Position numbers and translations under genes: made by a program. Under the pieces are notes generated by a model, which searched no databases, was not told the DNA's origin, and was given only the letters and a program-made list of their open reading frames with translations. Positions 13,086-54,785 of a DNA stretch of 64,000 bases are shown piece by piece. This DNA comes from a virus. Each line of letters starts with the position of its first letter. The stretch's first letter is position 1. The DNA lies in the IMG/VR virus record IMGVR_UViG_3300022602_000083, positions 1 to 64,000 of that record, one strand, 5' to 3'.

Positions 13086-14548
13086 ACATCGTATTTATGG
13101 GCGGAGAAGTACCGTCACACCGTATTCTACTGACCAATATGGACGTAAAGCACGTTAGCGTCAACTACTACCGTCTGGTAAAGCGAGGTCTTCCAAAGAC
13201 TAAGCAATACCTCTTGGCTGAGCGTTTCCCAGAAGACGTGAAGATCTATGTAGATGGTGGCGGCCATAACCTCAACGATCTAAATATGACTGAGCGTGAG
13301 CTTGAGGAGTATGCGGCTGATTACCAGGACTTCCTGGCTATCAATGCCGATAGGATCACCATGGCTACCGAGCTAGACGCCAAAGCTCTTGGCCAGAACT
13401 GGATCAATTACCAGAGGAAGACCTTTGGTGAGGAGTTCGGTCTGGATAAGTATGCGGTTGTCTGGCACCAGGAAACCGGTCACACTGGCCTTTTCAACCT
13501 AGCATCTCAGTTCCCTAACGTCGTACTGCTTGGGGAGTCCTTAGAGGACGACACGAGCCTGTCAGCACGTTCTAGGGCCCTTCTAAGTCAGTACCCTGAC
13601 CTAGAATTTCATGGGGTGGCATGTGCCAAGCCGGATAACCTACGTCAGGTTCCTCTCACTACTGCTAGCACCCTCTCTTGGCTTAGCCCAATGATGAGAG
13701 GCGAGACAATAGTATGGGATGGCACTAGACTTATCCGCTATCAGAAGAAGCAGAAGGATCAAGCTCGTCCTCGTTATAAAGCTGTAATCGAGAGAGCCGG
13801 TCTAGACTTCGACAAGATTATGAATGATGATAGTAACGAGGTAACCCGCCTCGCTATTTGGTCCTACCTGCAGTTGGAGAAGTCTTTGAACAGTAAGTTA
13901 TCTGATCACAGTGGTGGAATGGATGACCCAGGTCTAGCGGAAACCAGGGGTTCTACTCCTGATAACAGAGGGTCTGAGGTGCGGAAAGTTTTGTCGCCTG
14001 TAGCCCCTGAAGACCTCATGACATTGCCCGTTTTTGGTGTAAATAACAAGACGATCATTGAGAAAGATGAGGCCGGACGAGACGTTATCGCTGACGTTCC
14101 TGTCCTTCAGAGCACTCAAACTTCGTTCCGTCAATGCAATAGTTGCTTCGTGGCTAGCAATTGTCCGGCCTTCACACCGAACAGTAGCTGCAAATTTAGT
14201 CTTCCTGTAGAGGTCAAGACTAAGGATCAGCTAAAGGGATTATTGAACGCAGTTATCGAAATGCAGGGCGCTAGAGTCGCTTTTGCACGTTTTGCTGAAG
14301 AATTGAATGGTGGATACCCAGATCCTAATACCGGACAAGAGATTGACCGCCTATTCAAATTGGTAGGTGAGGTCAAGAAGTTAGAAGAGAATAAAGAGTT
14401 CATACAGATCACAGCACAGCGCCAATCCTCTGGTGGTATGCTTTCGGCCCTCTTCGGAGACCGGGCTAATACCCTCAGAGAAATCCCCGGTGGGGCAATA
14501 AGTGAGGGTGAAGTCAGCAAGATCATAGACCAAGGTCTAAACGGATAG
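13082..14548 (+). CDS. TGT-superfamily-like protein with C-terminal four-Cys cluster
   Basis: A 488-aa protein. Residues 1-240 carry features of phage TIM-barrel proteins related to tRNA-guanine transglycosylase/DpdA: VDGGGHNL, a TELD strand end, WHQETGH, FHGVACAKPDNLRQV and STLSWLSPM. The C-terminal part has C-x2-C-x5-C-x8-C near residue 347, a likely zinc or iron-sulfur site, then a helical domain. DpdA-type enzymes insert deazaguanine bases into DNA, but no queuosine-pathway genes are in this window, so the substrate is open. Assignment is from recalled family patterns. Confidence 0.45.
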   Translation: MNIVFMGGEVPSHRILLTNMDVKHVSVNYYRLVKRGLPKTKQYLLAERFPEDVKIYVDGGGHNLNDLNMTERELEEYAADYQDFLAINADRITMATELDAKALGQNWINYQRKTFGEEFGLDKYAVVWHQETGHTGLFNLASQFPNVVLLGESLEDDTSLSARSRALLSQYPDLEFHGVACAKPDNLRQVPLTTASTLSWLSPMMRGETIVWDGTRLIRYQKKQKDQARPRYKAVIERAGLDFDKIMNDDSNEVTRLAIWSYLQLEKSLNSKLSDHSGGMDDPGLAETRGSTPDNRGSEVRKVLSPVAPEDLMTLPVFGVNNKTIIEKDEAGRDVIADVPVLQSTQTSFRQCNSCFVASNCPAFTPNSSCKFSLPVEVKTKDQLKGLLNAVIEMQGARVAFARFAEELNGGYPDPNTGQEIDRLFKLVGEVKKLEENKEFIQITAQRQSSGGMLSALFGDRANTLREIPGGAISEGEVSKIIDQGLNG

Positions 14549-14589
14549 GACCTGTTAACAGTCAAAATATCTATAGAAAAGGGCGTCAC

Positions 14590-16626
14590 ATGTTTTCGTT
14601 TAAACTCGCAGACGAGTTTGTAGCATCATACCGATCCAAGAAGGTTCCGTGGGGATACCAGGATGCTGCCGGCAACTCCTTAGGAGAGATTACCTTTCTA
14701 AGAACTTACTCTCGTCTTAAAGAGGATGGGACCAAAGAGACTTGGGTGGATGTGTGCGAACGTGTAGTCAACGGCATGTACTCACTCCAAAAGGATCACG
14801 CCAAGCATAACCGACTACCTTGGTCTGACATGAAGGCTGCTACTTCAGCCAAAGAGGCGTTCGATCGCCTATTCAATCTTAAGTGGACTCCTCCTGGCCG
14901 TGGCCTATGGATGATGGGAACTCCACTAGTCAATGTACAGAAGAACTCTGCAGCGTTGCAGAACTGCTCCTTTGTATCTACAGAGTCTATGACCAAGAAC
15001 AATCCGGCTAAGCCATTTGCCTTCCTCATGGAAGCATCCATGCTTGGCGTTGGCGTGGGCTTTGATGATAAGGGCGCAGATAAAGACTTTACTATCTATG
15101 ATCCACAGAAAGGCGAAGAATATGTCATCCCCGACACCCGAGAAGGCTGGGTTGAATCAACCACAGCTCTCATCAATGCTTACCTACGACCAGATTCAAA
15201 GGCTCCAACGTATAGTTACACAGAAATTCGAGCAGCAGGCGAACCAATCAAAACTTTCGGAGGAAAAGCTTCCGGACCAGAGCCTCTAATCAAGCTTCAC
15301 AACCACATCATCAACCTATTTAAGAACAGAGCTGGCGATAAGCTGACTCGCCGTGATATCGCAGATATCGGAAACATGATGGGCGTATGTGTGGTTGCAG
15401 GTAACGTTCGACGTTCAGCTGAACTTCTAATCGGCCGTATTGATGACGAAGACTTCCTAAATCTTAAGAACCATGAAGTATTCCCTGAGCGTAATGCCTA
15501 CGACCCAACAGGGGAGAACTCTGGATGGGGCTGGATGTCTAACAACTCAGTAGAAGCGTCAGTAGGTCAAGACCTATCTCCAATCATTGACGGTATCGCC
15601 CGCAACGGTGAGCCGGGAGTAATCTGGATGGACGTCACTCGTAAGTACGGCCGTCTAGCAGATCCTGAGAACAACAAGGACTGGCGTGCCGCTGGCTACA
15701 ACCCATGTGCTGAACAATCATTGGAATCCTTTGAGTGCTGCACATTGGTAGAAACCTACATCAACCGCCATGACAGCCTAGAAGATTTCAAGCGCACCCT
15801 CAAGTTCGCCTATCTCTATGCCAAGACTGTAACTCTCATCCCTACCCACTGGGAAGAAACCAACGCCATCATGCAGCGTAACCGTCGTATCGGAACCTCA
15901 ATCTCCGGTATCGCTAACTTTGCTGACAGCAAGGGCTTGCCTCTACTCCGTACTTGGATGGACGAGGGATACAAGATCGTACAGTCCTATGATAAGAGCT
16001 ATTCAGAATGGTTGGGTATTCGTGAGTCTATCAAGACGACCACAGTGAAGCCTTCCGGCACAGTCTCTATCCTCGCAGGTGAGTCTCCAGGAGTTCACTG
16101 GACACCAGGAGGCAAGTACTTCCTACGCACAATGCGCTTTAGTAAGGCTGACCCAATGGTTGCCCTATTTAAGATGGCTAACTATCGTGTCGAAGACGCT
16201 GAGAGTGATCCTACAAATACTGCAGTTGTCTACTTCCCTATTAAGAGTAACTCCGAACGCTCAGAGCACGATGTATCTATCTATGAGAAGATGGCTTTGG
16301 CTGCCACAGCTCAGCGTTATTGGTCAGATAACTCGGTGTCAGTAACTATCTCATTTAACCCTGAGACAGAGGCTAAGGCAATCGGTACAGCTCTGCATAT
16401 GTATGACGGTCAGCTAAAGACCGTGTCATTCCTACCAATGGACAATGGCTCATACGCTCAGATGCCGTATACAAATAGTACCTCTGAAGAATACGAAGAA
16501 GGTACAATGACTTTGTTCCCAATTGATTTCTCGGGAATCTATGAAGGCATGGGTCTGGACGCAATTGGCGAAAGCTACTGCACCACAGATGCATGTGAAG
16601 TTAAGCTAATCAAAGACAACGCCTAA
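14590..16626 (+). CDS. nrdJ: Adenosylcobalamin-dependent ribonucleotide reductase, class II
   Basis: A 678-aa monomeric reductase converting ribonucleotides to deoxyribonucleotides with a B12 radical. All key cysteines of the Lactobacillus leichmannii-type enzyme can be placed: C126 (QNCSF), radical C373 with E375 in NPCAEQS, partner C384, and the C-terminal redox pair C664/C669 (CTTDAC). The length is slightly below the about 740 of the model enzyme. It would supply dNTPs for phage replication and needs host cobalamin. AAGGG precedes the ATG. It is near the end of the rightward operon. Confidence 0.92.
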   Translation: MFSFKLADEFVASYRSKKVPWGYQDAAGNSLGEITFLRTYSRLKEDGTKETWVDVCERVVNGMYSLQKDHAKHNRLPWSDMKAATSAKEAFDRLFNLKWTPPGRGLWMMGTPLVNVQKNSAALQNCSFVSTESMTKNNPAKPFAFLMEASMLGVGVGFDDKGADKDFTIYDPQKGEEYVIPDTREGWVESTTALINAYLRPDSKAPTYSYTEIRAAGEPIKTFGGKASGPEPLIKLHNHIINLFKNRAGDKLTRRDIADIGNMMGVCVVAGNVRRSAELLIGRIDDEDFLNLKNHEVFPERNAYDPTGENSGWGWMSNNSVEASVGQDLSPIIDGIARNGEPGVIWMDVTRKYGRLADPENNKDWRAAGYNPCAEQSLESFECCTLVETYINRHDSLEDFKRTLKFAYLYAKTVTLIPTHWEETNAIMQRNRRIGTSISGIANFADSKGLPLLRTWMDEGYKIVQSYDKSYSEWLGIRESIKTTTVKPSGTVSILAGESPGVHWTPGGKYFLRTMRFSKADPMVALFKMANYRVEDAESDPTNTAVVYFPIKSNSERSEHDVSIYEKMALAATAQRYWSDNSVSVTISFNPETEAKAIGTALHMYDGQLKTVSFLPMDNGSYAQMPYTNSTSEEYEEGTMTLFPIDFSGIYEGMGLDAIGESYCTTDACEVKLIKDNA

Positions 16627-19188: not shown

Positions 19189-19376
19189 GCTAATACCGTT
19201 AGCACTACACCGTTATCCTGTGCCCATTCAACTGGCTCAGAGATAGACTCGATTGTTAGGTTGGCTCCACCATCTACTAAGTCATCAGAGATATGTAGTA
19301 GAAACATTTGTGCTGCTTCATAGTCATTGAAAGGACCTATCAATGACTCAGTGATACTGTCGAATAGAACGTACAT
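19185..19376 (-). CDS. Hypothetical protein
   Basis: A 63-aa acidic alpha/beta protein. It starts in a TAATG overlap with the vWA gene and ends in an ATGA overlap, so it is co-translated with it. The N-terminal YVLFDSITESLIGPFNDYEAA resembles short phage proteins of unknown role. Confidence 0.6.
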   Translation of the reverse strand: MYVLFDSITESLIGPFNDYEAAQMFLLHISDDLVDGGANLTIESISEPVEWAQDNGVVLTVLA

Positions 19377-21181
19377 TATCTTCCTCTCTTTCTCATTGAA
19401 CCTACGACTACAGACCTAGCAAACGGCAGAAGATCACGGGCGCTAGCTACTCGACCATAGATCTCAACACCATGCTTGAACTTGTCATCGGTATACCCAT
19501 AACGCTCTTCGTACCATACACGCTCTCTATCCTCCATGATTAAGGTCATGGTGGTTAGTACTCCACGCTTACTGATACGTTCAATAACTTCATCATTCTT
19601 GTCGGCATCGAAGACACCGTCAGTAATAATGAATAGCATCTTATTCTTCTTACGTGAAGACATAAGAAGTTGCTCAGCTGCTAGCAATGATGAGTACGGA
19701 TTAGTACCACCATTACCATAGATGAACTTGTAGGTAGTTCTATCTGCAGACTCCTCACGACGATACGCTGTCTCAGCAGCATCATCGAAGGCATAGACTG
19801 TTACCAGACCGCCTACTTGTTCTAGAGCACGCTTGATAGTCCAGCATGCAATAGAGGCTTCACGATCGTTGCCACCGCCCATAGAACCTGAGCGATCAAC
19901 TAAGATCACAGCTTCGATATCAGCACCATCAGTACCCTCATCCCAACGATCGAAGGCTTCATCAATCTCACAGCCTCTGATTACACGTTGGACATTGAGC
20001 CTACCACTGGCTTCTTGCTTATGCCAAGCTGGTTCGCACTCATCACGCAAGCGTTCTAGCTCGTGTGCGAACTTACGATATACAGCCATAGCTTCAGCAG
20101 GGACGCTAGTCTTATCGAACCTACCATTCTTGATAGTATCGTTGTGCTTACCATCGCCTCCGACAATAACCTTTTGCTTTGTCTTGACGTCAGCTTGCAC
20201 ATCCTTACGTGCTAGTACATCCTCAACTACTTTATCGAGCATGTCGTGAACACTGTCTGGAATACCACCTAGACTTTCATGATGACCTTCTCCATCTAGC
20301 TTACCTCCTGGATTATCTGTATTGCGGTTGGCCATATCCAACGCATCCTGCTGTGTGGCAGGGGATTTGTTTGTGTTGGACGGCGTAGGTGACTCAGCTT
20401 TACCACTGTTCTTACCTTGGTTAGCGTCACGCTCCTGCGCCTTGCCAGGATCAGGACGACCCTTACTTACTGGGTCACGAGAGGTACAACCATTCATACC
20501 TTCTGGTGTCTTATCAGACCAGTTAGCAAGCACCTCATTCTTGAATCGTCTAATCAATTCAAGACCCTTGTCGTAGTCCTTAGGGAATGCTAATACACGA
20601 TACTGATCAACGATGTCAACGATTGCGGGGATTAGTGAAGGCTCTGCGAACATATCTCTGAACGCTTCACGTACCTCAATCGGTAGATACCTACGACCAC
20701 GCACCAGCATATAGTTACCCATAGCATCTTCAGGTGTGCGGCCTAGCCATCTAGCCACAGTTGCAGTGAGGAATGGTGCAATAGATGGATACCTAGATAC
20801 GAACAGCGTTTCGATACGCTGATCCTCTAGCATATTAGCTGCTTGCATCAAGTCTTCCTCAAGCACCTTCTTCATGAAGACTGTGCCTTTGCGTGGTGTA
20901 TACAAGTGATGGGCTAACTCGTGGAAGTTAAGACCATTTACCTGAGTCAACGCATCAAGATCAATGTCTTCTATCTGATTGGCATTGATAAAGATTGCTT
21001 GACCATCTGACCAAGCAGGTGCAGGACCATCAGGAACAACATTCACAATCACTGGGTCACCAGTGATTACTCTGTCTGCCTGTTCATACACACGGCATAA
21101 CGCATTAAGTCTCACAGCACGAAGCTGTGCTTCCTCTGTACGCTCTGCTATATACCTTTCATCTAAGTTGTCTTCGAACAT
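19376..21181 (-). CDS. vWA-domain protein with HExxH motif (CobT/metallopeptidase-like partner of the AAA+ ATPase)
   Basis: A 601-aa protein. Residues 1-180 contain HELAHH (87-92) and a downstream MLEDQRIE, the pattern of zinc metallopeptidase-like domains fused to vWA. A polar, disordered linker (about 220-320) precedes a C-terminal vWA domain with the MIDAS residues DRSGS and a later TDG. The layout matches MoxR/vWA and CobS/CobT pairs, in which the ATPase remodels a target held by the vWA partner. It lies 11 nt after the ATPase gene. The substrate is unknown. Confidence 0.75.
   Translation of the reverse strand: MFEDNLDERYIAERTEEAQLRAVRLNALCRVYEQADRVITGDPVIVNVVPDGPAPAWSDGQAIFINANQIEDIDLDALTQVNGLNFHELAHHLYTPRKGTVFMKKVLEEDLMQAANMLEDQRIETLFVSRYPSIAPFLTATVARWLGRTPEDAMGNYMLVRGRRYLPIEVREAFRDMFAEPSLIPAIVDIVDQYRVLAFPKDYDKGLELIRRFKNEVLANWSDKTPEGMNGCTSRDPVSKGRPDPGKAQERDANQGKNSGKAESPTPSNTNKSPATQQDALDMANRNTDNPGGKLDGEGHHESLGGIPDSVHDMLDKVVEDVLARKDVQADVKTKQKVIVGGDGKHNDTIKNGRFDKTSVPAEAMAVYRKFAHELERLRDECEPAWHKQEASGRLNVQRVIRGCEIDEAFDRWDEGTDGADIEAVILVDRSGSMGGGNDREASIACWTIKRALEQVGGLVTVYAFDDAAETAYRREESADRTTYKFIYGNGGTNPYSSLLAAEQLLMSSRKKNKMLFIITDGVFDADKNDEVIERISKRGVLTTMTLIMEDRERVWYEERYGYTDDKFKHGVEIYGRVASARDLLPFARSVVVGSMRKRGR
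20368..20378 (-). repeat. 11-bp repeat CAACACAAACA, copy 3
   Basis: Exact copy inside the vWA gene, encoding Asn-Thr-Asn-Lys in the disordered linker. Confidence 0.8.
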
Positions 21182-21192
21182 TTGTAGCCCCC

Positions 21193-22569
21193 TTATACGT
21201 TATATGCTGCTGCTACTACCCATTGTTGAAGTTCTTCATCAAGTGTTGGTGTCTTCTCAGCTTCTACTGCTTCTTCCTCAATTACTGGGGCAATACCGAA
21301 GTCTGATTGGATGTTGTACTGATGTGTCTGGAATACCAAACGAACTGATGCTTGCTCTTCAGCACCGAAGTGAGCGATGAAGTTTTCCACTGCGAACTCA
21401 TAGCCAAGCTTGCCTACGAAGTCACTGAACTCAATGAGCATGTTTGTGCTGATTGGGGTGTCGTACTGACCCTTGGCTGCTTCTGCACGAAGCTGCTTAA
21501 CTACTGTACGCAATGCCTTGCTTGCTACGAGCTTTTCCTCGACTGCATCATCGTAGTCCCACGCTAGCTGAATATCAAAGCGGTTACGCATTGCAAAGTT
21601 CAGCGGTGTTGTACCAATGTAATCTGGATTCATAGTAGCGAAGATGGTTAGATCTGGATGAGCCTCAATAGTTTCACCCATGTGATCTAGCAGTGTGATA
21701 GTACGACGACCATCAGTCAATGGATACAAGGTGGTATAGATCTTAGGACTAATGAAGTTCATCTCGTCTAGCAGCAACACGCCACCGTTACGAACCACAT
21801 CGGTTACTGGACCATCAATCCAACCATAACCACCATTACCATCAGGAATGAAGCCACCGAATAACTGGCGAGATTCCATAGATGCGTTACCAGATACTGT
21901 AGCCATACGCAGATCATTTTCAGCAGCCCATGCTTCTACAGCTGTTGTCTTACCTGGACCAGTTGGGCCATAGATAAGAACGTTAATGCCTTCGGCACGT
22001 GCGATATCAAAGGTCTTGAAGTCTTCGACTCCATACACCTTACGATGCACATAGCGTTCTGCCAGGTGCTTAGATGGAACTGTTGCTAACGACACGTTAA
22101 AAGCGGGGGTGCTGTCGTCTGTTTGTGTTGGCACAGGTACTACCAACGGACTTGTTGTTGCTCGGTTATCTATCACGTATTCCTCCAGGTTGTCGTCTCC
22201 TACCTCAACTTGAGAATAGAAGTCTTGGATTACATCTGCAATGGATGTCTTCATATCCACTGTAGATTTATTGTGTGCACTTACTGCTTTAGTAGTAAGG
22301 ACGGGAGAGTATCCCTTGGCATCAATAGCACGCAAGTCTGCTGCTGTCACATATACACCAACAGGCCTGTGAGTAACTACTTCGCCATCCTTAAAGGATG
22401 TATTTAGATTGGCAAGGGTGTCAGCCTCCCACTTATTGTGGGTACCCTTGGTTCCATCAGTAAGACGTGAATAGACATTGATAGCTCCCTTGTAAGGAAC
22501 TAGTAATATCTGACGTCTATGATTATTCATAGATGCTTCATATGACTCTGTGAACATTGCGATGTCCAT
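21193..22569 (-). CDS. MoxR/CobS-type AAA+ ATPase
   Basis: A 458-aa protein. Residues 1-185 are a variable N-terminal region. The AAA+ core has Walker A GPTGPGKTT (201-209), Walker B GVLLLDEMN (263-271), sensor-1 Asn in TMNP (N314) and an arginine-finger-like RNRFD. It resembles MoxR and CobS. CobS is the ATPase of aerobic cobalt insertion; phage genes called cobS may be either true chelatase subunits or general MoxR remodellers. It is followed directly by a vWA partner and overlaps the preceding gene by one base. Confidence 0.82.
   Translation of the reverse strand: MDIAMFTESYEASMNNHRRQILLVPYKGAINVYSRLTDGTKGTHNKWEADTLANLNTSFKDGEVVTHRPVGVYVTAADLRAIDAKGYSPVLTTKAVSAHNKSTVDMKTSIADVIQDFYSQVEVGDDNLEEYVIDNRATTSPLVVPVPTQTDDSTPAFNVSLATVPSKHLAERYVHRKVYGVEDFKTFDIARAEGINVLIYGPTGPGKTTAVEAWAAENDLRMATVSGNASMESRQLFGGFIPDGNGGYGWIDGPVTDVVRNGGVLLLDEMNFISPKIYTTLYPLTDGRRTITLLDHMGETIEAHPDLTIFATMNPDYIGTTPLNFAMRNRFDIQLAWDYDDAVEEKLVASKALRTVVKQLRAEAAKGQYDTPISTNMLIEFSDFVGKLGYEFAVENFIAHFGAEEQASVRLVFQTHQYNIQSDFGIAPVIEEEAVEAEKTPTLDEELQQWVVAAAYNV
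21441..21451 (-). repeat. 11-bp repeat, one-mismatch copy
   Basis: CAGCACAAACA in the ATPase gene, encoding part of Ser-Thr-Asn. It has the common orientation and fills the wide gap between copies 3 and 4. Confidence 0.5.
22120..22130 (-). repeat. 11-bp repeat CAACACAAACA, copy 4
   Basis: Exact copy inside the ATPase gene, read in another frame (Pro-Thr-Gln-Thr) than copies 2 and 3. Confidence 0.8.
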
Positions 22570-26851: not shown

Positions 26852-26990
26852 GCCAGTCTCCTTGTACGATGGCTTGCTGTGTCTTAAGTGTGTGTACATC
26901 TAACTTAAGTCGGGTTATCTCAAGAGCCATAGCCTGTGCTTGTATAGTCAGTTCCACTAGGCGTTGCTCCATTGCTCTCTTCTTACGCAC
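26832..26990 (-). CDS. Small coiled-coil protein (52 aa)
   Basis: GTG start with AAAGGAG, both inside the end of the WhiB gene. The heptad pattern of leucine/isoleucine/methionine through residues 9-42 predicts a short coiled coil. It may pair with the WhiB-like protein, which is speculation. Confidence 0.5.
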   Translation of the reverse strand: MRKKRAMEQRLVELTIQAQAMALEITRLKLDVHTLKTQQAIVQGDWHVPSNN

Positions 26991-27315
26991 TGATTCTCTC
27001 CTTTCTGTATAGGTTGGCTAATACCTGCTCTAATGAAAAGCAGGGTGTATTCATTGTGATAGCACCACGCTCTTCGGGTGTAGTGCCACCTTGGATTGAG
27101 TAACGATCATCTCTACTGACTGCGTCAGCAAGGCATTGTTGCTTGACTGGACAATCCGCACAGATACGCTTAGCTTCTGCTGCACGAGCCAGTTTGGCTG
27201 GGCCACGCTCATATACGCCGTAGTAGAAGATGTCCGTGTCCATACCTTTGCACTTGGCATCTTCGTGCCAACTGAGGTCTGCCCAGTCTGCTGAATGGTA
27301 GATTGCATCGCTCAC
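26983..27315 (-). CDS. whiB: WhiB-family transcriptional regulator
   Basis: A 110-aa protein. It carries the four iron-sulfur cysteines in the WhiB order: C22, C52, C55 and C61 (C-x29-C-x2-C-x5-C), then IQGG in place of the usual GVWGG turn and a PEER motif. WhiB proteins bind an [4Fe-4S] cluster and modify sigma factor use. Phage copies (for example TM4 WhiBTM4) repress host WhiB and block superinfection. GTG start at 27315 with GGAC upstream. Confidence 0.85.
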   Translation of the reverse strand: MSDAIYHSADWADLSWHEDAKCKGMDTDIFYYGVYERGPAKLARAAEAKRICADCPVKQQCLADAVSRDDRYSIQGGTTPEERGAITMNTPCFSLEQVLANLYRKERISA

Positions 27316-27425
27316 TCTTTGTCCTCTCTGAAATCCCAATCTTCTTGGTCAATCTTGTACTGACGCTCGATCAGGATAGCAGCTAACGACAGTACGATCA
27401 ACAGTACGATAAATAATCCAAACAT
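27312..27425 (-). CDS. Small single-TM protein (37 aa)
   Basis: ATG with AGGAAG upstream. Residues 2-19 form a hydrophobic helix and the C-terminus is acidic and charged. It ends in a GTGA overlap with WhiB and is probably a membrane micropeptide. Confidence 0.5.
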   Translation of the reverse strand: MFGLFIVLLIVLSLAAILIERQYKIDQEDWDFREDKE

Positions 27426-28989: not shown

Positions 28990-29454
28990 ATGGCTAAGAA
29001 GAAGATCTATCAGTTACCAGAGGACGAAGCTAACAAGCGTCTGAATCTGGGTTTGCGGACAGCTGAGAAGCTTGGGCTGCCTGAAGATGAGGTAGCGGTC
29101 CAGGTAGAGGGCTATAATGCCAATTACAGTAGCTATGTGGGTAGATACTACTGGCCTAAGGGTTTTGAGGTAATAGAAGCCCCTACGAGCGATAAGTCTA
29201 ATTCTAAGGATAAAAGAGATAGAGCTATCGAGTGTGCATACAATCGGAAAGCTGAAGTGCTAGTGATTGTCTTTAGAGCTCCTAAGAGTACTAACATTCC
29301 TCCATTGATCAGATATAACGATGTGCCAGTGGAAATGTGGGAGAACCTGAAGCAGTCCGACTCTACAGGTAAGTTCTTGAAGTATTCAGGTATAGACGAT
29401 GTAGCATGGTCAAAGACCAGTATTCCTGCTTTAACTGCAGAGTTTGGTGAATAA
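28990..29454 (+). CDS. KTSC-like domain protein
   Basis: A 154-aa protein. Residues 85-135 (EVLVIVF..., IRYNDVPVEMWENLKQ, SDSTGKFLKY) follow the KTSC domain pattern: two strands, a short Y-x-x-VP-x-x-x-W segment, and S-x-G-[KR]-Y/F at the end. KTSC domains occur alone or with nucleic-acid enzymes and are uncharacterised. A second related protein lies at 31016-31408. It is the first rightward gene after the switch. Confidence 0.55.
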   Translation: MAKKKIYQLPEDEANKRLNLGLRTAEKLGLPEDEVAVQVEGYNANYSSYVGRYYWPKGFEVIEAPTSDKSNSKDKRDRAIECAYNRKAEVLVIVFRAPKSTNIPPLIRYNDVPVEMWENLKQSDSTGKFLKYSGIDDVAWSKTSIPALTAEFGE

Positions 29455-29525: not shown

Positions 29526-30017
29526 ATGGCACACCCATATCATCAGGATCGTTACAAGGATCCATTTACTACCAATAGCGTAAGTAATAATCTAAAGCCA
29601 AATGAGATCACAATCCAGTCGCTATTCCCACAGTTCAATCGTTGGGCTATCGGATTTGATCCACTTCTACATACCCTACAGCAGGTAAGCTCTACAGCTA
29701 AGGCTAGTAGCTATCCTCCATACAACATCTACAAGGATGAGGACAAATACGTCCTAGAACTGGCTGTAGCCGGTTTTGGTAAGGAAGATATCACCATTAG
29801 CGTCAAAGAGCTCCAGTTGACCGTAGAAGGCCAATTAGAGGCATCTGAGAAGGAACCTATCCATAAGGGAATCGCTACCCGTGACTTCAAGCAAAACTTC
29901 GTTCTAGCGGAGTATGTAGTAGTCAAGGGAGCAGAGCTCAAGGATGGAATGCTCCGCATTACGCTAGAGCAAGAACTTCCTGAAGAGCTACAACCGAAGT
30001 TGATCAAAATCAAATAA
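29526..30017 (+). CDS. hsp20: Hsp20 / alpha-crystallin small heat-shock protein
   Basis: A 163-aa protein. From about residue 57 the alpha-crystallin domain is clear: PPYNIYKDEDKYVLELAVAG, then GKEDITISVKELQLTVEG, then the late strand DGMLRITLEQE, plus a C-terminal IKIK that can act as the I-x-I tail motif. These chaperones hold unfolded proteins and are found in several large phages, where they may aid virion assembly. It has its own promoter and leader. Confidence 0.88.
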   Translation: MAHPYHQDRYKDPFTTNSVSNNLKPNEITIQSLFPQFNRWAIGFDPLLHTLQQVSSTAKASSYPPYNIYKDEDKYVLELAVAGFGKEDITISVKELQLTVEGQLEASEKEPIHKGIATRDFKQNFVLAEYVVVKGAELKDGMLRITLEQELPEELQPKLIKIK

Positions 30018-31015: not shown

Positions 31016-31408
31016 ATGGATAAATACAGAAGCAGACGGTATAAGCCCGCAAGCTATGAAGATTATGCTGCTACGCTATCCGCCATTGATAAGGATGCTT
31101 CTAAGAGCCGTACCTTTGGCCCAGGTTATCAAGAGATCTATGCCCCCACAACTGGTGGGGATCGCCCCCGTGCCATGAAGGCGGGGTATAACTATGAGAA
31201 TGAAACCCTTATCATCATTATGAGGGATAACTACACCTGGATCCAGTATGATCAGGTTAGCCCTGAGATGTGGGATTCCCTACTTACCGCCGGTTCTAGC
31301 AATGAATACGTACATACAGTTTTAGAGGGTTGGCCGTGGAAGGTGGTCAATTATGGCAATATCCCTCGCACCCGTGGCCAGCACTTCGAGCTAGGCTCTG
31401 GGGAATAA
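31016..31408 (+). CDS. KTSC-like domain protein (second copy)
   Basis: A 130-aa protein. Residues 53-102 (MKAGYNYENETLIIIMRDNY, WIQYDQVSPEMWDSL, GSSNEYV) follow the same order as the domain in 28990-29454, with low identity. It has a basic, Tyr-rich N-terminus. Function is unknown; the two are probably ancient paralogues. Confidence 0.5.
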   Translation: MDKYRSRRYKPASYEDYAATLSAIDKDASKSRTFGPGYQEIYAPTTGGDRPRAMKAGYNYENETLIIIMRDNYTWIQYDQVSPEMWDSLLTAGSSNEYVHTVLEGWPWKVVNYGNIPRTRGQHFELGSGE

Positions 31409-31444
31409 TCTGCTACGATTAGGCTCTAATTACGAGAGGGATTT

Positions 31445-32035
31445 ATGACAACGCTTGCAGCTTTTCAAGGTAACGGCTTCGCAATTATTGGAGCCGACTC
31501 ACGGGCAACTGACGATAATGGTAGCCATATCGTATTGTCTAACCCTAAAGTAACTTGGGATGACGACGACAATTATCTTTTTGCTATCACAGGTGCAACA
31601 CGTGGTGGCAACTTAGTACAACAAGGTTGGACTCCACCAGAGCCTCCTGCATTTAGCACTGTACACAAGCTAGATCAGTTTATGACCCAAATCTTTATCG
31701 CTCAGATGCGAGATCACTTTATTGATTCAGGTTTTGAATCTAAAGCTCGTGATACTGCTGCGTGGACTGATTCTGCATTCCTAGTAGCTGTTCAAGGTGT
31801 TATCTACCCAATTAACTCAGATTACGGTTGGGATCGTGACCGTCGTGGTATTTATGTCTTTGGTAGCGGTGGAGATGTATCTCTAGGTGTTATGCATGCT
31901 CTTGGTATTGAAAAGTGCAAAGATGATCCTAAGAAGGCTAAAGAGATTATCAAGAAGGCTATCGAAGCTGCATGTGAGTGGAATGCTTATTGCGCCCTTC
32001 CAGTCGTAATTGAAACCCAGGTATTTGAGCAGTAA
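31445..32035 (+). CDS. Proteasome/HslV-like Ntn-hydrolase protease
   Basis: A 196-aa protein. The start MTTLAAFQGNG followed by IIGADSRAT is that of proteasome beta and HslV subunits: after Met removal the Thr nucleophile is at position 1, with Asp at 17 and Lys near 34 (SNPKVTW). GSGGDVSLGVMHALG fits the later conserved region. No partner ATPase or alpha subunit is adjacent. Its place before the head genes suggests a role in virion protein maturation or in shielding phage proteins, which is inference. Confidence 0.75.
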   Translation: MTTLAAFQGNGFAIIGADSRATDDNGSHIVLSNPKVTWDDDDNYLFAITGATRGGNLVQQGWTPPEPPAFSTVHKLDQFMTQIFIAQMRDHFIDSGFESKARDTAAWTDSAFLVAVQGVIYPINSDYGWDRDRRGIYVFGSGGDVSLGVMHALGIEKCKDDPKKAKEIIKKAIEAACEWNAYCALPVVIETQVFEQ

Positions 32036-43386: not shown

Positions 43387-44151
43387 ATGTCAGAAAACTC
43401 AACAGCAGTAGAGAGTGCAGCGGCTCAAGAAGCTTTTGCATCAGAAGCTAACCCAACACAAACAACAGCAACTGCTCCTGAGGGACAGTTCACTGCAGTT
43501 AAGGGTTACACAGAAACAGACTTGCAGCGTGTACGTGAGCAAGAAAAATCAAAACTTTATCCACAGATTGACTCTCTTAAAGAAGAACTTAATCTTCTTA
43601 AGAAAGATCGTGATGAGCGTTTAGCGGAGGCTCGTGCAGCAGCAGAAGCTGCAGCAGAAGCTGACCGCAAGAAGCTTGAAGCTGATATGGATGTCCGCCA
43701 ACTCCTTGAAACAAAGGAAAAGGAATGGGCAGCAAAGATTGAAGCTGAGCGTCTAGAACGTGAACGTGCGTTCGCTCTCCTAGAGCGTGAGCGTGAATAT
43801 GCAGAGATCACACAGTATCTCAACCGCCGCCTTAGTGAAGAGCAAGAGAACATTGCTCCAGAACTTATTGATATGGTTACTGGAAACAGTGTCGAAGAGA
43901 TAGAAAATAGTATTTCCAAACTTAAGGACAAAACGTCCAAGCTTTTGGAAGCGATGGTACAGGCTAACCAGCAAGTCCGTCGAGAAATGAAAGGCACAAG
44001 TACTACCCTACCTCCAACTATGGAAAACAACTCGGATCAACAATCGTTTACAGCGGAACAAATCTCCGCTATGTCGGTAGCTGACTACGCAAAGAATCGC
44101 AGTCGTTTAATCCCTGGAGCTAACGCCCAATCTAAGGGCATCTTCGGGTAA
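43387..44151 (+). CDS. Scaffolding protein
   Basis: A 254-aa protein. Long charged coiled coil from about residues 45-180 (many Glu, Arg, Ala heptads), disordered ends, and a C-terminal hydrophobic/basic patch that can contact the shell. It sits directly before the major capsid gene, the usual place. It guides head assembly and leaves before or during packaging. Confidence 0.85.
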   Translation: MSENSTAVESAAAQEAFASEANPTQTTATAPEGQFTAVKGYTETDLQRVREQEKSKLYPQIDSLKEELNLLKKDRDERLAEARAAAEAAAEADRKKLEADMDVRQLLETKEKEWAAKIEAERLERERAFALLEREREYAEITQYLNRRLSEEQENIAPELIDMVTGNSVEEIENSISKLKDKTSKLLEAMVQANQQVRREMKGTSTTLPPTMENNSDQQSFTAEQISAMSVADYAKNRSRLIPGANAQSKGIFG

Positions 44152-44205: not shown

Positions 44206-45282
44206 ATGGCATCAGCCGTAACAGGTACCGGCAATCTCGCCGCAGCACCTACAGCGTACTCTGGCGCAAACAGCCAGCTTACACAAGCAATTCAGACCAT
44301 CTGGTCTAAGGAAATTCTATTCCAGTCAATGCCTATCCTTCGCTTCGAACAGTTCGCTGTTAAGAAGACAGAACTAGGCGTCGCACCTGGTCTCCAAATC
44401 AACTTCATGCGTTACAACAACCTCGGATTCGCTTCAACACTTACTGAAGGTGTCCGTATGTCAACAAACGCATTGACTGCACAACAGTTCTCAATCACTG
44501 TTGCTGAGCAAGGATACGCAATCGCAGTATCAGAGCTTCTCCTCAACGCATCATTTGATGATGTTATGGCATCAGCTTCACGTCTTCTTGGACGTAACAT
44601 GGCTCTCTATCTTGATGGCCAGGCTCGTGACACCCTCATGGCTGCTTCTTCAGTCATCTACGGTGAAGATCGCTCAGCTCTCTCAGCTGTTAACAACTGG
44701 TATGCATATGGCACAGAAGCAACTTCTCGTGCAACAATGACCGGTGCTTCATACCTCTCAACACGTACTGTTAAAGACGCTGTCGAGACACTTGCAACAA
44801 AGAACATCCCTCGCTTGGGTGAGACCTATGTTGCTTTCGTGCACCCACACCAATCACGTCGTCTTCGTGACCTCCCAGAGTTCATTGAAGTAACAAAGTA
44901 CGCAGCTCCAGGTAACTTCATGCTCGGTGAAATCGGTCGTTTGTACGACACAGTCTTTATTGAGACAACACAGGTTACAAAGGTAACAAACGGTGCAGGT
45001 TCAGGCTACACAACTGACACAGCTGTGGCTACAGGATCAATCGCATACCCAACTGGTGGAGGATATACAACACCAGTAACAGCAACAGGTAACGGTTCAT
45101 CTGACCGCTACTCAGCAATCTTCATCGGAGACAACGCCTTCGGTCACGCTATCTCACTTCCAGTTGAGCTTCGTGATGGTGGTATCTTGGACTTCGGTCG
45201 TGAGCATGCACTTGCTTGGTACGCAATTTACGGTCTTGGTCTTATTACTGACCAATCTGTAGTTATCGCAGAAACCAACTAA
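44206..45282 (+). CDS. Major capsid protein, N4-gp56 type
   Basis: A 358-aa protein. The pattern WSKEILFQSMPILRFEQFA at the N-terminus, then GYAIAVSELLLNASFDDVM, then DTLMAASS, then HPHQSRRLRDLPEF matches the N4-gp56 family with HK97 fold. No cleaved delta domain is present; the scaffold is separate. Strong AAGGAG site before the ATG. A terminator follows. Confidence 0.9.
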   Translation: MASAVTGTGNLAAAPTAYSGANSQLTQAIQTIWSKEILFQSMPILRFEQFAVKKTELGVAPGLQINFMRYNNLGFASTLTEGVRMSTNALTAQQFSITVAEQGYAIAVSELLLNASFDDVMASASRLLGRNMALYLDGQARDTLMAASSVIYGEDRSALSAVNNWYAYGTEATSRATMTGASYLSTRTVKDAVETLATKNIPRLGETYVAFVHPHQSRRLRDLPEFIEVTKYAAPGNFMLGEIGRLYDTVFIETTQVTKVTNGAGSGYTTDTAVATGSIAYPTGGGYTTPVTATGNGSSDRYSAIFIGDNAFGHAISLPVELRDGGILDFGREHALAWYAIYGLGLITDQSVVIAETN

Positions 45283-47539: not shown

Positions 47540-49096
47540 ATGGCACGTAGTTTCTTAACCCCTATTAACCTGAATCAGCTTGAGCTTCAGAATGCTCGTA
47601 TTCAGAACCTTGCCACAGCGCCGTCATCTCCCGTTGCCGGTCAGATCTACTATGACACAACAGTCAGCCAACTTAAGGTCTATGAAGGTACTGGTTGGGC
47701 TCCTGTAGGTGGCGTAGCTACTGGTGCAGGTGCACCAGCAACATCACCTCTTTCTACAGGCTCAATGTATCTTGATACAACAAACAGCCTTCTCTATGTT
47801 TCTAACGGAACTGCTTCATCTGCTAACTGGATTCCAGTTATGCCTTATGGACTTACATCAGATATTGCCAACCTAAACTCGGCAAATGCTTCAGGTTCCT
47901 CTCTTAAGGTTGCTCGTGCAGATCACGTACACCGCCATATTGATACAGATCACTCTGGAATTCACCTTAACGCCCTTGCTACTGCAACCGGTGCGTACTC
48001 AATGGGTGGCTACCAGATCAACAACGTTGCCACACCTACAGCATCAACAGACGCTGCTAACAAAGGCTACGTAGATGCTACTGCTCAAGGTCTTTCTATT
48101 GTTGAGAGCGCTGAAGCAGCAACCACATCTTCTCTTACAACTAACTGGGCGTACACAGCTGGAACTGCTGGCGCTGATGGTGGTACTGGTGTTGGAGCAA
48201 CACTTGTTTACTCTGCTGCTGGAACTTTCACAATTGATGGTCACGCCCTTGTAACAGGCGACCGTGTTCTCGTTAAGAACCAAGTAACTGGGTCTCAAAA
48301 CGGTATCTATACAGTTGGAACAACAGGGGGATCAACTCTTACTCTTACTCGTGCTACCGACTATGATAACCACATTGCTGGTCAAGTTGGTCCAGGGGAC
48401 TTTATCTTTGTAACTGCCGGTACAACTAACGGCTCTACTGGTTGGGTTCAAACACAGGCCGGTACATCAACAACACCAACTAATGGCACTAAGCTTGGAA
48501 CTGATTCACTATCTTGGACACAGTTCTCAGGTACTGGAGCTTACACAGCTTCTAATGGTGTTCTTCTTACCGGAACTAACTTTACTTTTAACCCACTATC
48601 TACTGGTGGTTTGGCTACCGGCTCTTCTGGAGGCTATGTACTTCTTCCATCTACTTCAGGTCTTGCAACCTCAAGCAGTGGCCTTACCCTCAACCCAACA
48701 AGCACAGGCGGTTTGACAACAAACTCTTCTGGTGCACTTATTCTTCTAAATACCACCTCAGGTATGAATACCACAAGCAGTGGCTTAGCAGTAACCCCTG
48801 GCCTCGGTATCACAATCACAGGTCAAGGTGCGGCCGGAGCTGCAACTAATAACCAAGTAGCTATTAACACCGACGTAGTAGTCCGTAAATATGCTGCTAC
48901 AATTGGTGACGGAACAACGACATCATTCACAATTACACACAATATGGCAACCAAGGATGTACAGGTAACTCTGTACGACAACACAACTAACGTTGAGTAC
49001 ACAGCAGATGTTACACACTCTACGACTAACACAGTCACAGTAGCTTTTGCAAACGCTCCTTCTAGTAACCAAATTCGTGTAGTAGTATTCGCATAA
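47540..49096 (+). CDS. Tail-fibre-like protein
   Basis: A 518-aa protein. The N-terminus has a collar-type module (PVAGQIYYDTTVSQLKVYEGTGW); then INNVATPTASTDAANKGYVDAT, a signature of trimeric phage fibres; then a long Thr/Ser/Gly beta region with repeats (TSSGLTLNPTSTGGL, TTSSGLAVTPG). The C-terminus (FTITHNMATKDVQVTLYD) is a knob-like beta domain also seen in other phages. It probably helps in host recognition. Confidence 0.75.
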   Translation: MARSFLTPINLNQLELQNARIQNLATAPSSPVAGQIYYDTTVSQLKVYEGTGWAPVGGVATGAGAPATSPLSTGSMYLDTTNSLLYVSNGTASSANWIPVMPYGLTSDIANLNSANASGSSLKVARADHVHRHIDTDHSGIHLNALATATGAYSMGGYQINNVATPTASTDAANKGYVDATAQGLSIVESAEAATTSSLTTNWAYTAGTAGADGGTGVGATLVYSAAGTFTIDGHALVTGDRVLVKNQVTGSQNGIYTVGTTGGSTLTLTRATDYDNHIAGQVGPGDFIFVTAGTTNGSTGWVQTQAGTSTTPTNGTKLGTDSLSWTQFSGTGAYTASNGVLLTGTNFTFNPLSTGGLATGSSGGYVLLPSTSGLATSSSGLTLNPTSTGGLTTNSSGALILLNTTSGMNTTSSGLAVTPGLGITITGQGAAGAATNNQVAINTDVVVRKYAATIGDGTTTSFTITHNMATKDVQVTLYDNTTNVEYTADVTHSTTNTVTVAFANAPSSNQIRVVVFA

Positions 49097-49108
49097 GGAG
49101 GTTAAGAA

Positions 49109-49309
49109 GTGTCAAAGCCCTTTTTAACCCCCATAAATCTGGTCCAAGCTGCCACAGATCCTGGTACTGCTACAGCCGGAGATATGTACTTCAATACCGT
49201 TGATCAAGCGGTAAAGGTGTATAACGGCACAAGTTGGAACGATGTAGGAACTGGAACAGGCGGGGGCAACGGTAATGCCGATGCCTACACATATATGGGA
49301 GTTTATTAA
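49109..49309 (+). CDS. Small fibre-associated protein
   Basis: A 66-aa protein. The start (KPFLTPINLVQAAT) and a TAGDMYFNTVDQAVKVYNGTSW motif are the same module as at the start of 47540-49096, but the rest of a fibre is missing. It could be a chaperone-like fragment or a duplicated head of a fibre. GTG start with GGAGG. Confidence 0.65.
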   Translation: MSKPFLTPINLVQAATDPGTATAGDMYFNTVDQAVKVYNGTSWNDVGTGTGGGNGNADAYTYMGVY

Positions 49310-49641
49310 TGGCTACATACACACCTACGGCTACACCTACACTCTTTTATAGAGGCGCCGCTACTACAACCACTTCAACTCTTTATACAGTACCTACTAG
49401 TGGCACGTCTTATAGCACCGTGTCTATCTTGACTGATATTGTGATCTCTAGCACAGACGTTAACCAACAGACCGCAAGTATCTATGTAGATGGCGTGGTC
49501 TTGGTCCCTAATGTGCCTATTCCGTCTAATAGCGTTATCAATTTTCAGTTCAAAACAGTCATGACTACAGGAAAGCTTATTACGGCAATTGCTGGATCTA
49601 CAAACGTTAGCTTTCATATTAGCGGAATTCAGTTGCAATAA
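49309..49641 (+). CDS. Tail-fibre-associated beta protein
   Basis: A 110-aa protein, Thr/Ser/Val-rich, with a pattern (LYTVPTSGTSYSTVSILTDIVISS, then INFQFKT, then NVSFHISGIQ) of a small beta sandwich. It is related in layout to 49998-50330. TAATG junctions on both sides. Confidence 0.6.
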   Translation: MATYTPTATPTLFYRGAATTTTSTLYTVPTSGTSYSTVSILTDIVISSTDVNQQTASIYVDGVVLVPNVPIPSNSVINFQFKTVMTTGKLITAIAGSTNVSFHISGIQLQ

Positions 49642-49970
49642 TGGCCATACAACAATACCCTGCCTATAATAACGTAGTTAACGCCCTTACCTGGAAGTAT
49701 CAGGCTGTGGGTGGAGAGACTACTGTCTCTGGTAAAGATAACTTTAACCAGGTTCTTTTATATACTGCCGGTATTGAGCAGGTCTATTTAAACGGAGTTT
49801 TACTCGTTAGGGCTGTAGATTATACGGCTGTAGACGGAAAGACAGTTACTTTTCCAATACATCTAAATACAAATGACTACTTACAGATTTACTGCATCAC
49901 TGCCTACTCAGTTGCTACAACATCTGGGTCAGGAGAATCGTTTCATCCTTTCTTAATGATGGGTGCATAA
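49641..49970 (+). CDS. Tail-fibre-associated protein
   Basis: A 109-aa protein. WKYQAVGGETTVSGKDNFNQVL, then IEQVYLNGVLLVRAVDYTA, then TVTFPIHLNTNDYLQI are nearly the same as the N-terminal domain of 52746-54197, so it is a stand-alone copy of a fibre domain. Confidence 0.65.
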   Translation: MAIQQYPAYNNVVNALTWKYQAVGGETTVSGKDNFNQVLLYTAGIEQVYLNGVLLVRAVDYTAVDGKTVTFPIHLNTNDYLQIYCITAYSVATTSGSGESFHPFLMMGA

Positions 49971-49997
49971 AATGGTACAATACGTTGAGGAGAAAAA

Positions 49998-50330
49998 ATG
50001 ACATCGCCGTACTATAAGGTTTTAGGCCAAGCCTATCCGGCTGCTACAACAAATACCGACGTCTACACAGTAGGTGCCGGTAAGTCTGCTGTTCTCTCAA
50101 CCATAGCAGTATGCAATCAAACAGGTAATCAAATCACCTTTAATATTGCCATCCGTCCAAGCGGAGCAACACTAACTAATAGCCAGTATATTGCCTATGG
50201 AACTCCAGTAAACGGTAATACAACAGACTTTATCACTATTGGTACTACACTTGGGGCTGGAGATGTAGTAACGGTTTACAGTGCCACCCAAGGCATCTCA
50301 TTTAACGTATTTGGAACGGAGATCTACTAA
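49998..50330 (+). CDS. Tail-fibre-associated beta protein
   Basis: A 110-aa protein. VYTVGAGKSAVLSTIAVCNQTG, then NIAIRPSGATLTNSQYIAYG, then AGDVVTVYSATQGISFNVFG form a beta sandwich like 49309-49641. AGGAG site; a TACAAT box lies near 49978. Confidence 0.65.
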   Translation: MTSPYYKVLGQAYPAATTNTDVYTVGAGKSAVLSTIAVCNQTGNQITFNIAIRPSGATLTNSQYIAYGTPVNGNTTDFITIGTTLGAGDVVTVYSATQGISFNVFGTEIY

Positions 50331-52402
50331 TGTCAGTTTCCATTATTGGTTCTTCTTCTGCAGGCTCAGCATTTAACATCTCTATTACATCTACGTATGA
50401 GACTGTTCTTTTAACTAATCCACAACCAGCTGGAGCGTATACTTTTACCTCAGCCTTGTCTAACATTACTATGGACCTATACTTTTACAGTGCTACGGGT
50501 CAATTAGTGGCGTCTACAAATCTTAAGTCTATTAACCCAAGCATTTCATTTAGCAAGATTGTTATCTTAGGTGGAACTGTTGGAGACGTACTCTCTTTTA
50601 CATTTCAACAGACTTATGGAGGTACAGCAGAAACTGCAGAAACTACAGCTGGACCGGTGATATTAAGCACATCTCCTACATCTTTACCTAATGCTAGTAG
50701 TACAACAGTGGTTACTGGACTTAATTTTCCTTCAAACATTACGGCTACATTTACTGGTACAGATAGCGTAGCAAGAACACCCGCATCAATTGTTTACGGA
50801 TCCGCCACATCTCTTGTTATACAGCGCCCAGCTATTATGCCCATCTCTGCTGCCCCATATACACTATCAGTAACAAACCCATCTGTAACTCCTCCAACAG
50901 GATCAACTAAAAATACAATTTCTAATTTAACTGCAGGTTCATTGCCAACATGGATTACATCAACTTCTTTGGGAAGTTGGGCACAGGGTACACCTTTAAG
51001 TATTACTCTTCAGGCATCAGATACAAATCCAGGTGGCAGCATTACTTATTCAGTTGTTTCAGGATCATTGCCAACGGGAGTTACATTCAATACATCAACA
51101 GGAATAATTTCGGGAACTCCTATTGTTGCCACCCCAGCAAACTATACAATTACTATTGCAGCAACAAATGCTGGAGGAAATGCAGTAAATAGAACATTCA
51201 CCCTTGGACCAGATGCTGGTCCAGTATGGGTTAGTTCTGGAGCACTTACTACATACGGACCATCTGCGTATTCATATCAATTAACAGCAACAGATGACTC
51301 TGGAACAGCACCCACATACTCTTTGGCATCTGGTTCTTTGCCAACTGGTCTTTCTTTATCTAGTTCTGGATTAATTTCTGGCTCTGCATACAGTGGAACT
51401 ACATCTGGAACAAGCACATTTACAGTTACAGCTACCGATGCAAACGGAACCTCTACTACTAGTGGAACTCTTACTATAGGGTACAGCTTCTTTGGTGTAG
51501 GAAGTTCATTTACATTTACAACTACAGGACTTTCAGGACCTACTGGGCCAACCCTTGGACAACTTCAATCCGCCTACTCAGCAACATCTTGGGCACAAAG
51601 CACTAGCAATTTAACTTTAGGTTCTTACAATGGTTATCAAGCTTGGATTGTTCCAGCTACAGGTACTTATGAATTTTTAGTTAAGGGTGCATTTGGTGGG
51701 TCAACAGGAGCCGCTGCAGATGGTGGCGCAGCAATAATTAGAGGAAGAACAACTTTAACTGCAGGTGAAACTATTATTATTACTTGTGGACAAACACAAG
51801 GGCCAAGTCAAAATACTTCTTGGTGGGGAGGAAATGGCGGAACATTTGTAGTTCGTAACAGTGGAAACATTCCACTATATGTGGCTGGCGGAGGACAAAA
51901 CCATGCCGCCTCCAACCCAGGGTCAAATATGGCAATTACCACTAGTGGTCAGAACGGTTCTAATGGTGGAGTTGCCACCGCTGGAACTAACGGAAATGGT
52001 GGCAGCGGAAATCTTTCAGGAGGCGGTGGTGGTGGATTTTTTAGTGCTGGAGGAAACTCTAGCTATGGTCAGGGCGGCGGTGGATATAATAATGGTTTAG
52101 TTGGCGGAAGCGGTACATCAAACAACGGATCCTATGGTGGATTTGGTGGTGGTGGTGGTGGAGACGGTCAGCAATATGGTGGTACAGGTGCTTCTGGAGG
52201 ATATAGCGGAGGCGGAGGCGGAACATCTACTCAAGCAGCAGCAGCTTATGGAGGTTCTTACATAGTAACTGGCTCTACTAACGTTGCAACATCTTCAGGT
52301 CTTTATAATGGAGCCTCAACTTTTGAATCTCAAGGCACAATTGTTAACATAGGATATAGCACATCTACCTCAGGCAGCGTTTTGGTTACAAGGATAAGCT
52401 AA
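50330..52402 (+). CDS. Adhesin-like tail protein with Ig-like domains and Gly-rich C-terminus
   Basis: A 690-aa protein. An N-terminal unique domain is followed by an IPT-like domain (about 105-190), then two putative Ig (He_PIG) domains marked by SGSLPTGVTF...GIISGTP and SGSLPTGLSLSSSGLISG. The last 230 residues are a Gly-rich region with many GGGGG and GGxGG runs, as in receptor-binding tips of phage fibres. Full-length paralogue of 55119-57122. TAATG junction at the start. Confidence 0.75.
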   Translation: MSVSIIGSSSAGSAFNISITSTYETVLLTNPQPAGAYTFTSALSNITMDLYFYSATGQLVASTNLKSINPSISFSKIVILGGTVGDVLSFTFQQTYGGTAETAETTAGPVILSTSPTSLPNASSTTVVTGLNFPSNITATFTGTDSVARTPASIVYGSATSLVIQRPAIMPISAAPYTLSVTNPSVTPPTGSTKNTISNLTAGSLPTWITSTSLGSWAQGTPLSITLQASDTNPGGSITYSVVSGSLPTGVTFNTSTGIISGTPIVATPANYTITIAATNAGGNAVNRTFTLGPDAGPVWVSSGALTTYGPSAYSYQLTATDDSGTAPTYSLASGSLPTGLSLSSSGLISGSAYSGTTSGTSTFTVTATDANGTSTTSGTLTIGYSFFGVGSSFTFTTTGLSGPTGPTLGQLQSAYSATSWAQSTSNLTLGSYNGYQAWIVPATGTYEFLVKGAFGGSTGAAADGGAAIIRGRTTLTAGETIIITCGQTQGPSQNTSWWGGNGGTFVVRNSGNIPLYVAGGGQNHAASNPGSNMAITTSGQNGSNGGVATAGTNGNGGSGNLSGGGGGGFFSAGGNSSYGQGGGGYNNGLVGGSGTSNNGSYGGFGGGGGGDGQQYGGTGASGGYSGGGGGTSTQAAAAYGGSYIVTGSTNVATSSGLYNGASTFESQGTIVNIGYSTSTSGSVLVTRIS

Positions 52403-54760: not shown

Positions 54761-54785
54761 TTTACCACTATTTGCTACAGGAGAT

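What the first reader, a model, noticed from the sequence alone, without database searches (positions are those of the whole stretch)
31445..32035. Proteasome/HslV-like protease in a phage late region
The N-terminal Thr and the Asp and Lys of the proteasome active site are all in place. Actinobacteria carry 20S proteasomes, so the gene may derive from a host. It lies before virion genes, unlike usual phage maturation proteases. It may be a new type of capsid maturation enzyme or may disturb the host proteasome.
Basis: partly seen in the sequence, partly recalled or inferred. Interest (0 to 1): 0.6.

Follow-up and report, generated by a model that had tools for sequence, protein, structure and literature searches.

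The report
Proteasome-like protease in an actinobacterial phage
This virus of actinobacteria carries a complete, selectively maintained gene for a small relative of the proteasome's catalytic subunit, most likely an extra peptide-cutting barrel used inside the infected cell and not the usual capsid-trimming enzyme; phage proteins of this kind are already known, but what they do is not.

Summary
ORF 31445-32035 (+, 196 aa) is a real gene for a proteasome/HslV-fold peptidase. Thr2 (after Met1), D18, K35 and G50 match proteasome Thr1, Asp17, Lys33 and the oxyanion glycine and are invariant in 23 related viral proteins; codons there vary silently and dN/dS is about 0.05. The AlphaFold model (pLDDT 84) matches BPH best (E 1e-11), then HslV and 20S beta. 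The kind is known: PHROG_1040 'peptidase HslV family' and the phage homologues PPH/AAH of Fuchs et al. 2021, who found no actinophage with AAH, so an actinophage branch adds coverage. It does not derive from the actinobacterial 20S beta subunit and is not standard HslV: no HslU/Clp-type unfoldase was found, and its pore loop is about 17 residues against 6. A capsid-maturation role is disfavoured: Streptomyces phages with a 74%-identical capsid protein lack the gene, as do those sharing the head layout of its portal-adjacent relatives, and close relatives sit in unrelated gene contexts. Best reading: a mobile accessory, unfoldase-independent, BPH-like threonine peptidase acting in the infected cell; substrates unknown.

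The parts
31445..32035 (+). Gene for the proteasome/HslV-fold N-terminal threonine peptidase, 196 aa
   Evidence: PHROG_1040 E 1e-18; profile to HslV/BPH; AF2 model pLDDT 84, BPH E 1e-11
31427..31441 (+). In-frame stop TAA (31427-31429) and Shine-Dalgarno GAGAGGGA (31434-31441) that fix the start codon
   Evidence: sequence; relatives
31448..31450 (+). Thr2 = mature Thr1, nucleophile; follows initiator Met directly, no propeptide
   Evidence: Thr in all viral and bacterial relatives compared except pT24 (Ser); codons vary
31496..31498 (+). Asp18 = proteasome Asp17
   Evidence: invariant
31547..31549 (+). Lys35 = proteasome/HslV Lys33
   Evidence: invariant in the alignment of 37 proteins
31592..31594 (+). 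Gly50 = oxyanion-hole glycine
   Evidence: invariant in the 23 related viral proteins; Ser in the rhizobial/Streptomyces branch and two phages
31865..31867 (+). Ser141 of the GSGG motif (HslV GSGG; proteasome Ser129)
   Evidence: Ser or Thr in the phage family; AGC/TCN codon switch
31727..31777 (+). Pore loop between helix 2 and the next strand, about 17 residues (HslV 6, PrcB 12); net charge -1 here, -3 to -4 in most near relatives
31016..31408 (+). Upstream neighbour, KTSC-domain protein; neighbour kept in L016
   Evidence: Pfam PF13619
32112..33074 (+). Downstream neighbour with PASTA-like domain and similarity to a virion protein family; kept in L016
39375..40958 (+). Terminase large subunit (7.9 kb downstream)
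   Evidence: 52% identical to Streptomyces phage BRock
41557..43275 (+). Portal protein
43387..44151 (+). Coiled-coil scaffold-like protein, at the place of the annotated scaffold of LuckySocke; no protease domain found
44206..45282 (+). Major capsid protein, aligned from residue 1 with BRock-group capsid proteins at 72-74%; no long cleavable N-terminal domain seen
26983..27339 (-). WhiB transcription factor: marker of an actinobacterial host
   Evidence: PF02467 E 1e-17

Best explanation
The gene encodes a catalytically competent N-terminal threonine peptidase of the proteasome-like family (group I: HslV, BPH, AAH and others). Host methionine aminopeptidase removes Met1 and exposes Thr1. There is no propeptide, so subunits should become active on assembly into a BPH/HslV-like double ring with the active sites inside. 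With no HslU/Clp-type unfoldase gene found and a pore loop much longer than that of HslV, as in BPH, it most likely works without an AAA+ partner, on small, unfolded or unassembled proteins in the infected cytoplasm. It is an accessory gene traded among actinobacterial phages, probably late-expressed in some lineages, and not a fixed part of head assembly. Shown here: fold, active site, start codon, purifying selection, host type, change of context, and that related head modules exist without it. Inferred: catalytic activity, ring assembly, unfoldase independence, substrates, role in infection.
For: Active-site residues and start position conserved; dN/dS about 0.05; profile hits HslV and BPH; model matches BPH first, TM 0.73/0.76, E 1e-11. 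No propeptide, as in BPH, which also lacks an apparent partner unfoldase (PMC5777263). Pore loop 17 residues against 6 in HslV. The only AAA+ protein seen in the viral record is a MoxR/CobS-type ATPase, below the cut-off for the HslU/Clp family. Four context types with at least 4 changes on the tree, the portal-adjacent one at least twice. Head modules with 72-74% identical capsid protein or 43-45% identical portal lack it.
Against: No biochemical test, and oligomer state not modelled. In the window/L016 and portal-adjacent lineages it sits in a same-strand run with structural genes, which would also fit a virion-linked role. The viral record may be incomplete (67.9 kb, linear), and a host unfoldase could serve it. 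Pore-loop charge is near neutral in the DSL-LC01-like branch, unlike BPH.
Confidence: 0.6

Rival explanations
1. It is a new type of head maturation or scaffold-degrading protease that acts inside the prohead.
For: In L013, L024-L028 and ct2KA10 it lies directly behind the portal gene; in ct2KA10 scaffold-like and capsid genes follow further down. In DSL-LC01-like phages it lies 1.4-6 kb before terminase. No ClpP- or S78-type protease was found in this viral record.
Against: Streptomyces phages BRock and LuckySocke share capsid protein (72-74%), terminase (51-52%) and the portal-scaffold-capsid gene order but have no homologue by profile search; Beephvirinae with the portal-adjacent lineage's head layout also lack it. 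The capsid protein has no evident long N-terminal domain to remove. Other relatives sit among replication, tRNA and nucleotide genes. A self-compartmentalising barrel is a poor fit for trimming a shell.
Confidence: 0.13
2. It is a host-takeover or counter-defence protease that destroys specific host proteins (regulators or defence proteins).
For: Accessory distribution, change of context and standalone opposite-strand placement in the L011, L017-L023, L029, L030 lineages resemble accessory (moron-like) genes.
Against: No defence or counter-defence neighbours stood out among the neighbour families shown; no substrate evidence; the window copy is in a late-type cluster.
Confidence: 0.2
3. It disturbs the host 20S proteasome, for example by co-assembly with PrcB.
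For: Actinobacteria often carry 20S proteasomes (general knowledge).
Against: Very low similarity to PrcB (9 bits); its own catalytic set is intact and under selection; whether the host has a 20S proteasome is unknown.
Confidence: 0.03
4. It has the fold but a different chemistry, such as that of the protein ligase connectase or another N-terminal hydrolase.
For: The fold family includes a monomeric ligase, connectase (PMC8665760).
Against: Helices of both pairs are present in the model and no connectase-type helical insertion after strand 3 is seen; all protease residues are kept.
Confidence: 0.04

Closest known systems
PHROG_1040 'peptidase HslV family' / AAH and PPH phage proteasome homologues (Fuchs, Alva, Lupas 2021, PMC8665760)
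   Same: Proteasome-like fold, Thr1/Asp17/Lys33, no propeptide, found in tailed phages, compact C-terminus, function unknown
   Different: Separate, well-supported actinophage branch; the 2021 survey found no actinobacterial phage with AAH. Longer than PPH (196 against about 140 aa) and has helix 2, which PPH lacks. AAH membership could not be tested because the published alignments were not at hand
BPH (beta-proteobacterial proteasome homologue, PDB 5ovs/5ovu, PMC5777263)
   Same: Best structural match; no propeptide; long pore loop; no apparent partner unfoldase
   Different: About 18% identity; pore loop less acidic in this copy; ring symmetry untested
HslV (ClpQ)
   Same: GSGG motif, catalytic residues, best PDB profile score
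   Different: Scores 13.6 bits against a curated cut-off of 137; pore loop short in HslV; no HslU found in this virus
Actinophage proteases: DSL-LC01 'ATP-dependent protease subunit', Arthrobacter phages Pitbull/Hum25, Microbacterium phage Pumpernickel
   Same: Homologous (26-35% identity), annotated by name only
   Different: Different gene neighbourhoods; no functional study found

Membership tests
Proteasome-like Ntn peptidase (group I) | Thr1/Ser1, Asp17, Lys33 and oxyanion glycine in place | tested here: met
Proteasome-like Ntn peptidase (group I) | Proteasome fold | tested here: met
   AF2 pLDDT 84, BPH E 1.3e-11, HslV E 3e-10
Proteasome-like Ntn peptidase (group I) | Compact C-terminus without the extra S12/H5 elements | tested here: met
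   model ends with strand 188-193; feature from PMC8665760
HslV | Passes the curated HslV equivalog cut-off | tested here: not met
   13.6 against 137 bits
HslV | HslU/Clp-type unfoldase partner in the same genome | tested here: not met
   PF07724 only sub-cut-off (15.8 of 27 bits) on a MoxR/CobS-type ATPase; the record may be partial
20S proteasome beta (PrcB) | Similarity to the PrcB family | tested here: not met
   no TIGR03690 hit for the window protein; Mtb PrcB 9.1 bits by family profile
20S proteasome beta (PrcB) | Cleaved propeptide before Thr1 | tested here: not met
   Met directly before Thr
BPH | No propeptide and elongated pore loop | tested here: met
   features from PMC5777263
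BPH | Highly acidic pore loop | tested here: inconclusive
   net charge -1 in this copy, -3 to -4 in most near relatives, about 0 in the DSL-LC01-like branch
BPH | Tetradecameric double ring | not testable with these tools
   monomer prediction only
PPH | About 140 residues, lacks helix 2 | tested here: not met
   196 aa, helix 73-94 present
AAH | Clusters with the published AAH alignment | not testable with these tools
   published alignments not at hand; rhizobial and Streptomyces homologues score 68-83 bits but form a separate branch
Phage head maturation protease | Fixed association with its capsid/scaffold module | tested here: not met
   absent from phages with 72-74% identical capsid protein; context changes among close relatives
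Phage head maturation protease | Capsid protein with cleaved N-terminal domain | tested here: inconclusive
   capsid protein aligns from residue 1 with those of protease-less phages, which argues against; cleavage itself cannot be assayed here

The most novel reading that the evidence does not exclude
Actinobacterial phages use a self-assembling, unfoldase-free proteasome-type barrel as a virion or prohead protease, or as a scaffold-disposal machine, in the portal-adjacent and window lineages: a maturation protease unrelated to the known serine types.
Probability: 0.12. Interest if true: 0.75.

Novelty: new member of a known kind. Interest (0 to 1): 0.36.

Why it matters
Phage proteasome homologues have been catalogued, but a survey found no context or partner hinting at function. 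This actinophage branch gives a well-conserved, BPH-like set of natural variants from phages related to culturable Streptomyces phages, plus head-module controls with and without the gene. That makes the question of what a virus does with a proteasome subunit testable.

Tried and rejected
Single-sequence PDB search found nothing; a profile was needed. Direct link to Hsp20 (29526-30017): not seen beside any homologue examined, dropped. MoxR/CobS-type ATPase at 21193-22569 as unfoldase: far from the gene, no support. LuckySocke 'peptidase' gp42: its sequence looks NlpC/P60-like by eye and the record has no profile match, so it is not a counterpart. Genome-wide scan for bacterial hosts gave one contig, in a Gammaproteobacteria MAG that itself carries a WhiB gene, so probably a mis-binned actinophage. 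A deep tree with HslV and PrcB has long branches; only the near clades are trusted. In the first tree one HslV row (L067) was translated on the wrong strand and its placement is void. A very diverse alignment could not be used as a search pattern.

Full report
What is there. The ORF at 31445-32035 encodes 196 residues starting MTTLAAFQGNGFAIIGADSRAT. PHROG_1040, 'peptidase HslV family', matches residues 1-192 at E 1e-18. Pfam Proteasome matches only below its cut-off and a single-sequence PDB search finds nothing. A profile of 14 phage homologues finds HslV (E 8e-16), BPH over its full length (E 2e-11) and 20S beta subunits. The AlphaFold2 model from 25 homologues has pLDDT 84 and pTM 0.84; Foldseek ranks BPH first (E 1e-11), then HslV, then 20S beta, and finds many viral proteins of the fold.

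Active site and start. Thr2 directly follows the initiator Met. A Shine-Dalgarno (GAGAGGGA) lies at 31434-31441 and an in-frame TAA at 31427. Most relatives have a stop a few codons upstream, and three start with GTG at the same codon. Removal of Met before Thr by methionine aminopeptidase is established knowledge, so Thr is expected at the mature N-terminus. T2, D18, K35 and G50 are invariant in the 23 viral relatives compared, and S141 is Ser, or Thr in two. The codons at these sites change silently, with an AGC/TCN switch at S141; pN is 0.041 and pS 0.498 against the nearest relative.

Which kind. The NCBIfam HslV score is 13.6 bits against a cut-off of 137. The family profile scores E. coli HslV at 25 bits, Mtb PrcB at 9, and the bacterial and more distant phage homologues at 68-118 (the PrcB sequence was recalled and verified identical to PDB chains). 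Origin from the host 20S proteasome is therefore not supported. Fuchs et al. 2021 (PMC8665760) described 22 proteasome-like families, of which PPH and AAH are found in many phages. They found no function hints and stated that no Actinobacteria-specific phage encoding AAH could be found. The window protein is too long for PPH and has helix 2. Its pore loop is about 17 residues against 6 in HslV, resembling BPH, which lacks a propeptide and a partner unfoldase (PMC5777263).

Host. A WhiB gene lies at 26983-27339 (E 1e-17), and WhiB-cluster genes lie beside 20 of 41 homologues (five of these checked by Pfam). The capsid protein is 72-74% identical to Streptomyces phage BRock-group capsids and the terminase 51-52%. 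Actinobacterial host: well supported.

Context. Four arrangements were seen. (a) Window and L016: KTSC gene, peptidase, virion-like gene, about 8 kb before terminase. (b) L013, L024-L028 and ct2KA10: directly behind the portal gene. (c) L011, L017-L023, L029, L030: a lone plus-strand gene among minus-strand genes, next to an exonuclease. (d) DSL-LC01-like phages: 1.4-6 kb before terminase. On the tree these need at least 4 changes, and starred branches force two for the portal-adjacent arrangement (L013 groups with L030 at 99/99). Other phages carry homologues among tRNA, ThyX and MazG genes or at the genome end.

Capsid maturation. BRock and LuckySocke have the same terminase-portal-scaffold-capsid order but no homologue by PHROG or own-profile search, with positive controls in the same searches. 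Beephvirinae phages Kumquat and ZooBear, whose portal is about 43-45% identical to that of the portal-adjacent lineage, also lack it. The window capsid protein aligns from residue 1 with those of phages lacking the peptidase. Related head modules therefore work without it. A role in a minority of lineages is not excluded, because no ClpP or S78 protease was found in this record.

Mechanism. Shown: fold, active site, start, selection, host type, mobility between contexts. Inferred: activity, ring assembly, independence from an unfoldase (only a MoxR/CobS-type ATPase was seen; the record may be partial), action on unfolded or unassembled proteins in the infected cell. Host-takeover or counter-defence activity is the main rival.

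Noticed in passing
L064:4001-4546 (also L065, L066 and Rhizobium plasmid hits): A proteasome-like gene annotated 'hypothetical protein' lies in the nif region of a Sinorhizobium symbiotic plasmid, between nifQ and the iron-sulfur assembly/nifS genes; homologues on plasmids of other rhizobia and Paraburkholderia, with Ser at the oxyanion position and Cys in GCG instead of GSG.
   Followed up: partly
window 19376-22569 (-): VWA protein next to a MoxR/CobS-type AAA+ ATPase; DSL-LC01 also has an AAA ATPase next to a 'cobalamin biosynthesis' gene.
   Followed up: partly
window 28990-29454 and 31016-31408: Two KTSC-domain proteins, one directly upstream of the peptidase and kept in L016.
   Followed up: no
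window 29526-30017: Hsp20-type small heat-shock protein gene (PHROG_432, E 3e-34).
   Followed up: partly
window 13082-16626: Queuine tRNA-ribosyltransferase-like gene followed by ribonucleotide reductase.
   Followed up: no
window 47540-57122: Several Ig/He_PIG-containing virion proteins, one matching head-decoration families.
   Followed up: no
L061: Contig binned as a Gammaproteobacteria MAG carries the peptidase and a WhiB gene, so it is probably a mis-binned actinophage.
   Followed up: partly
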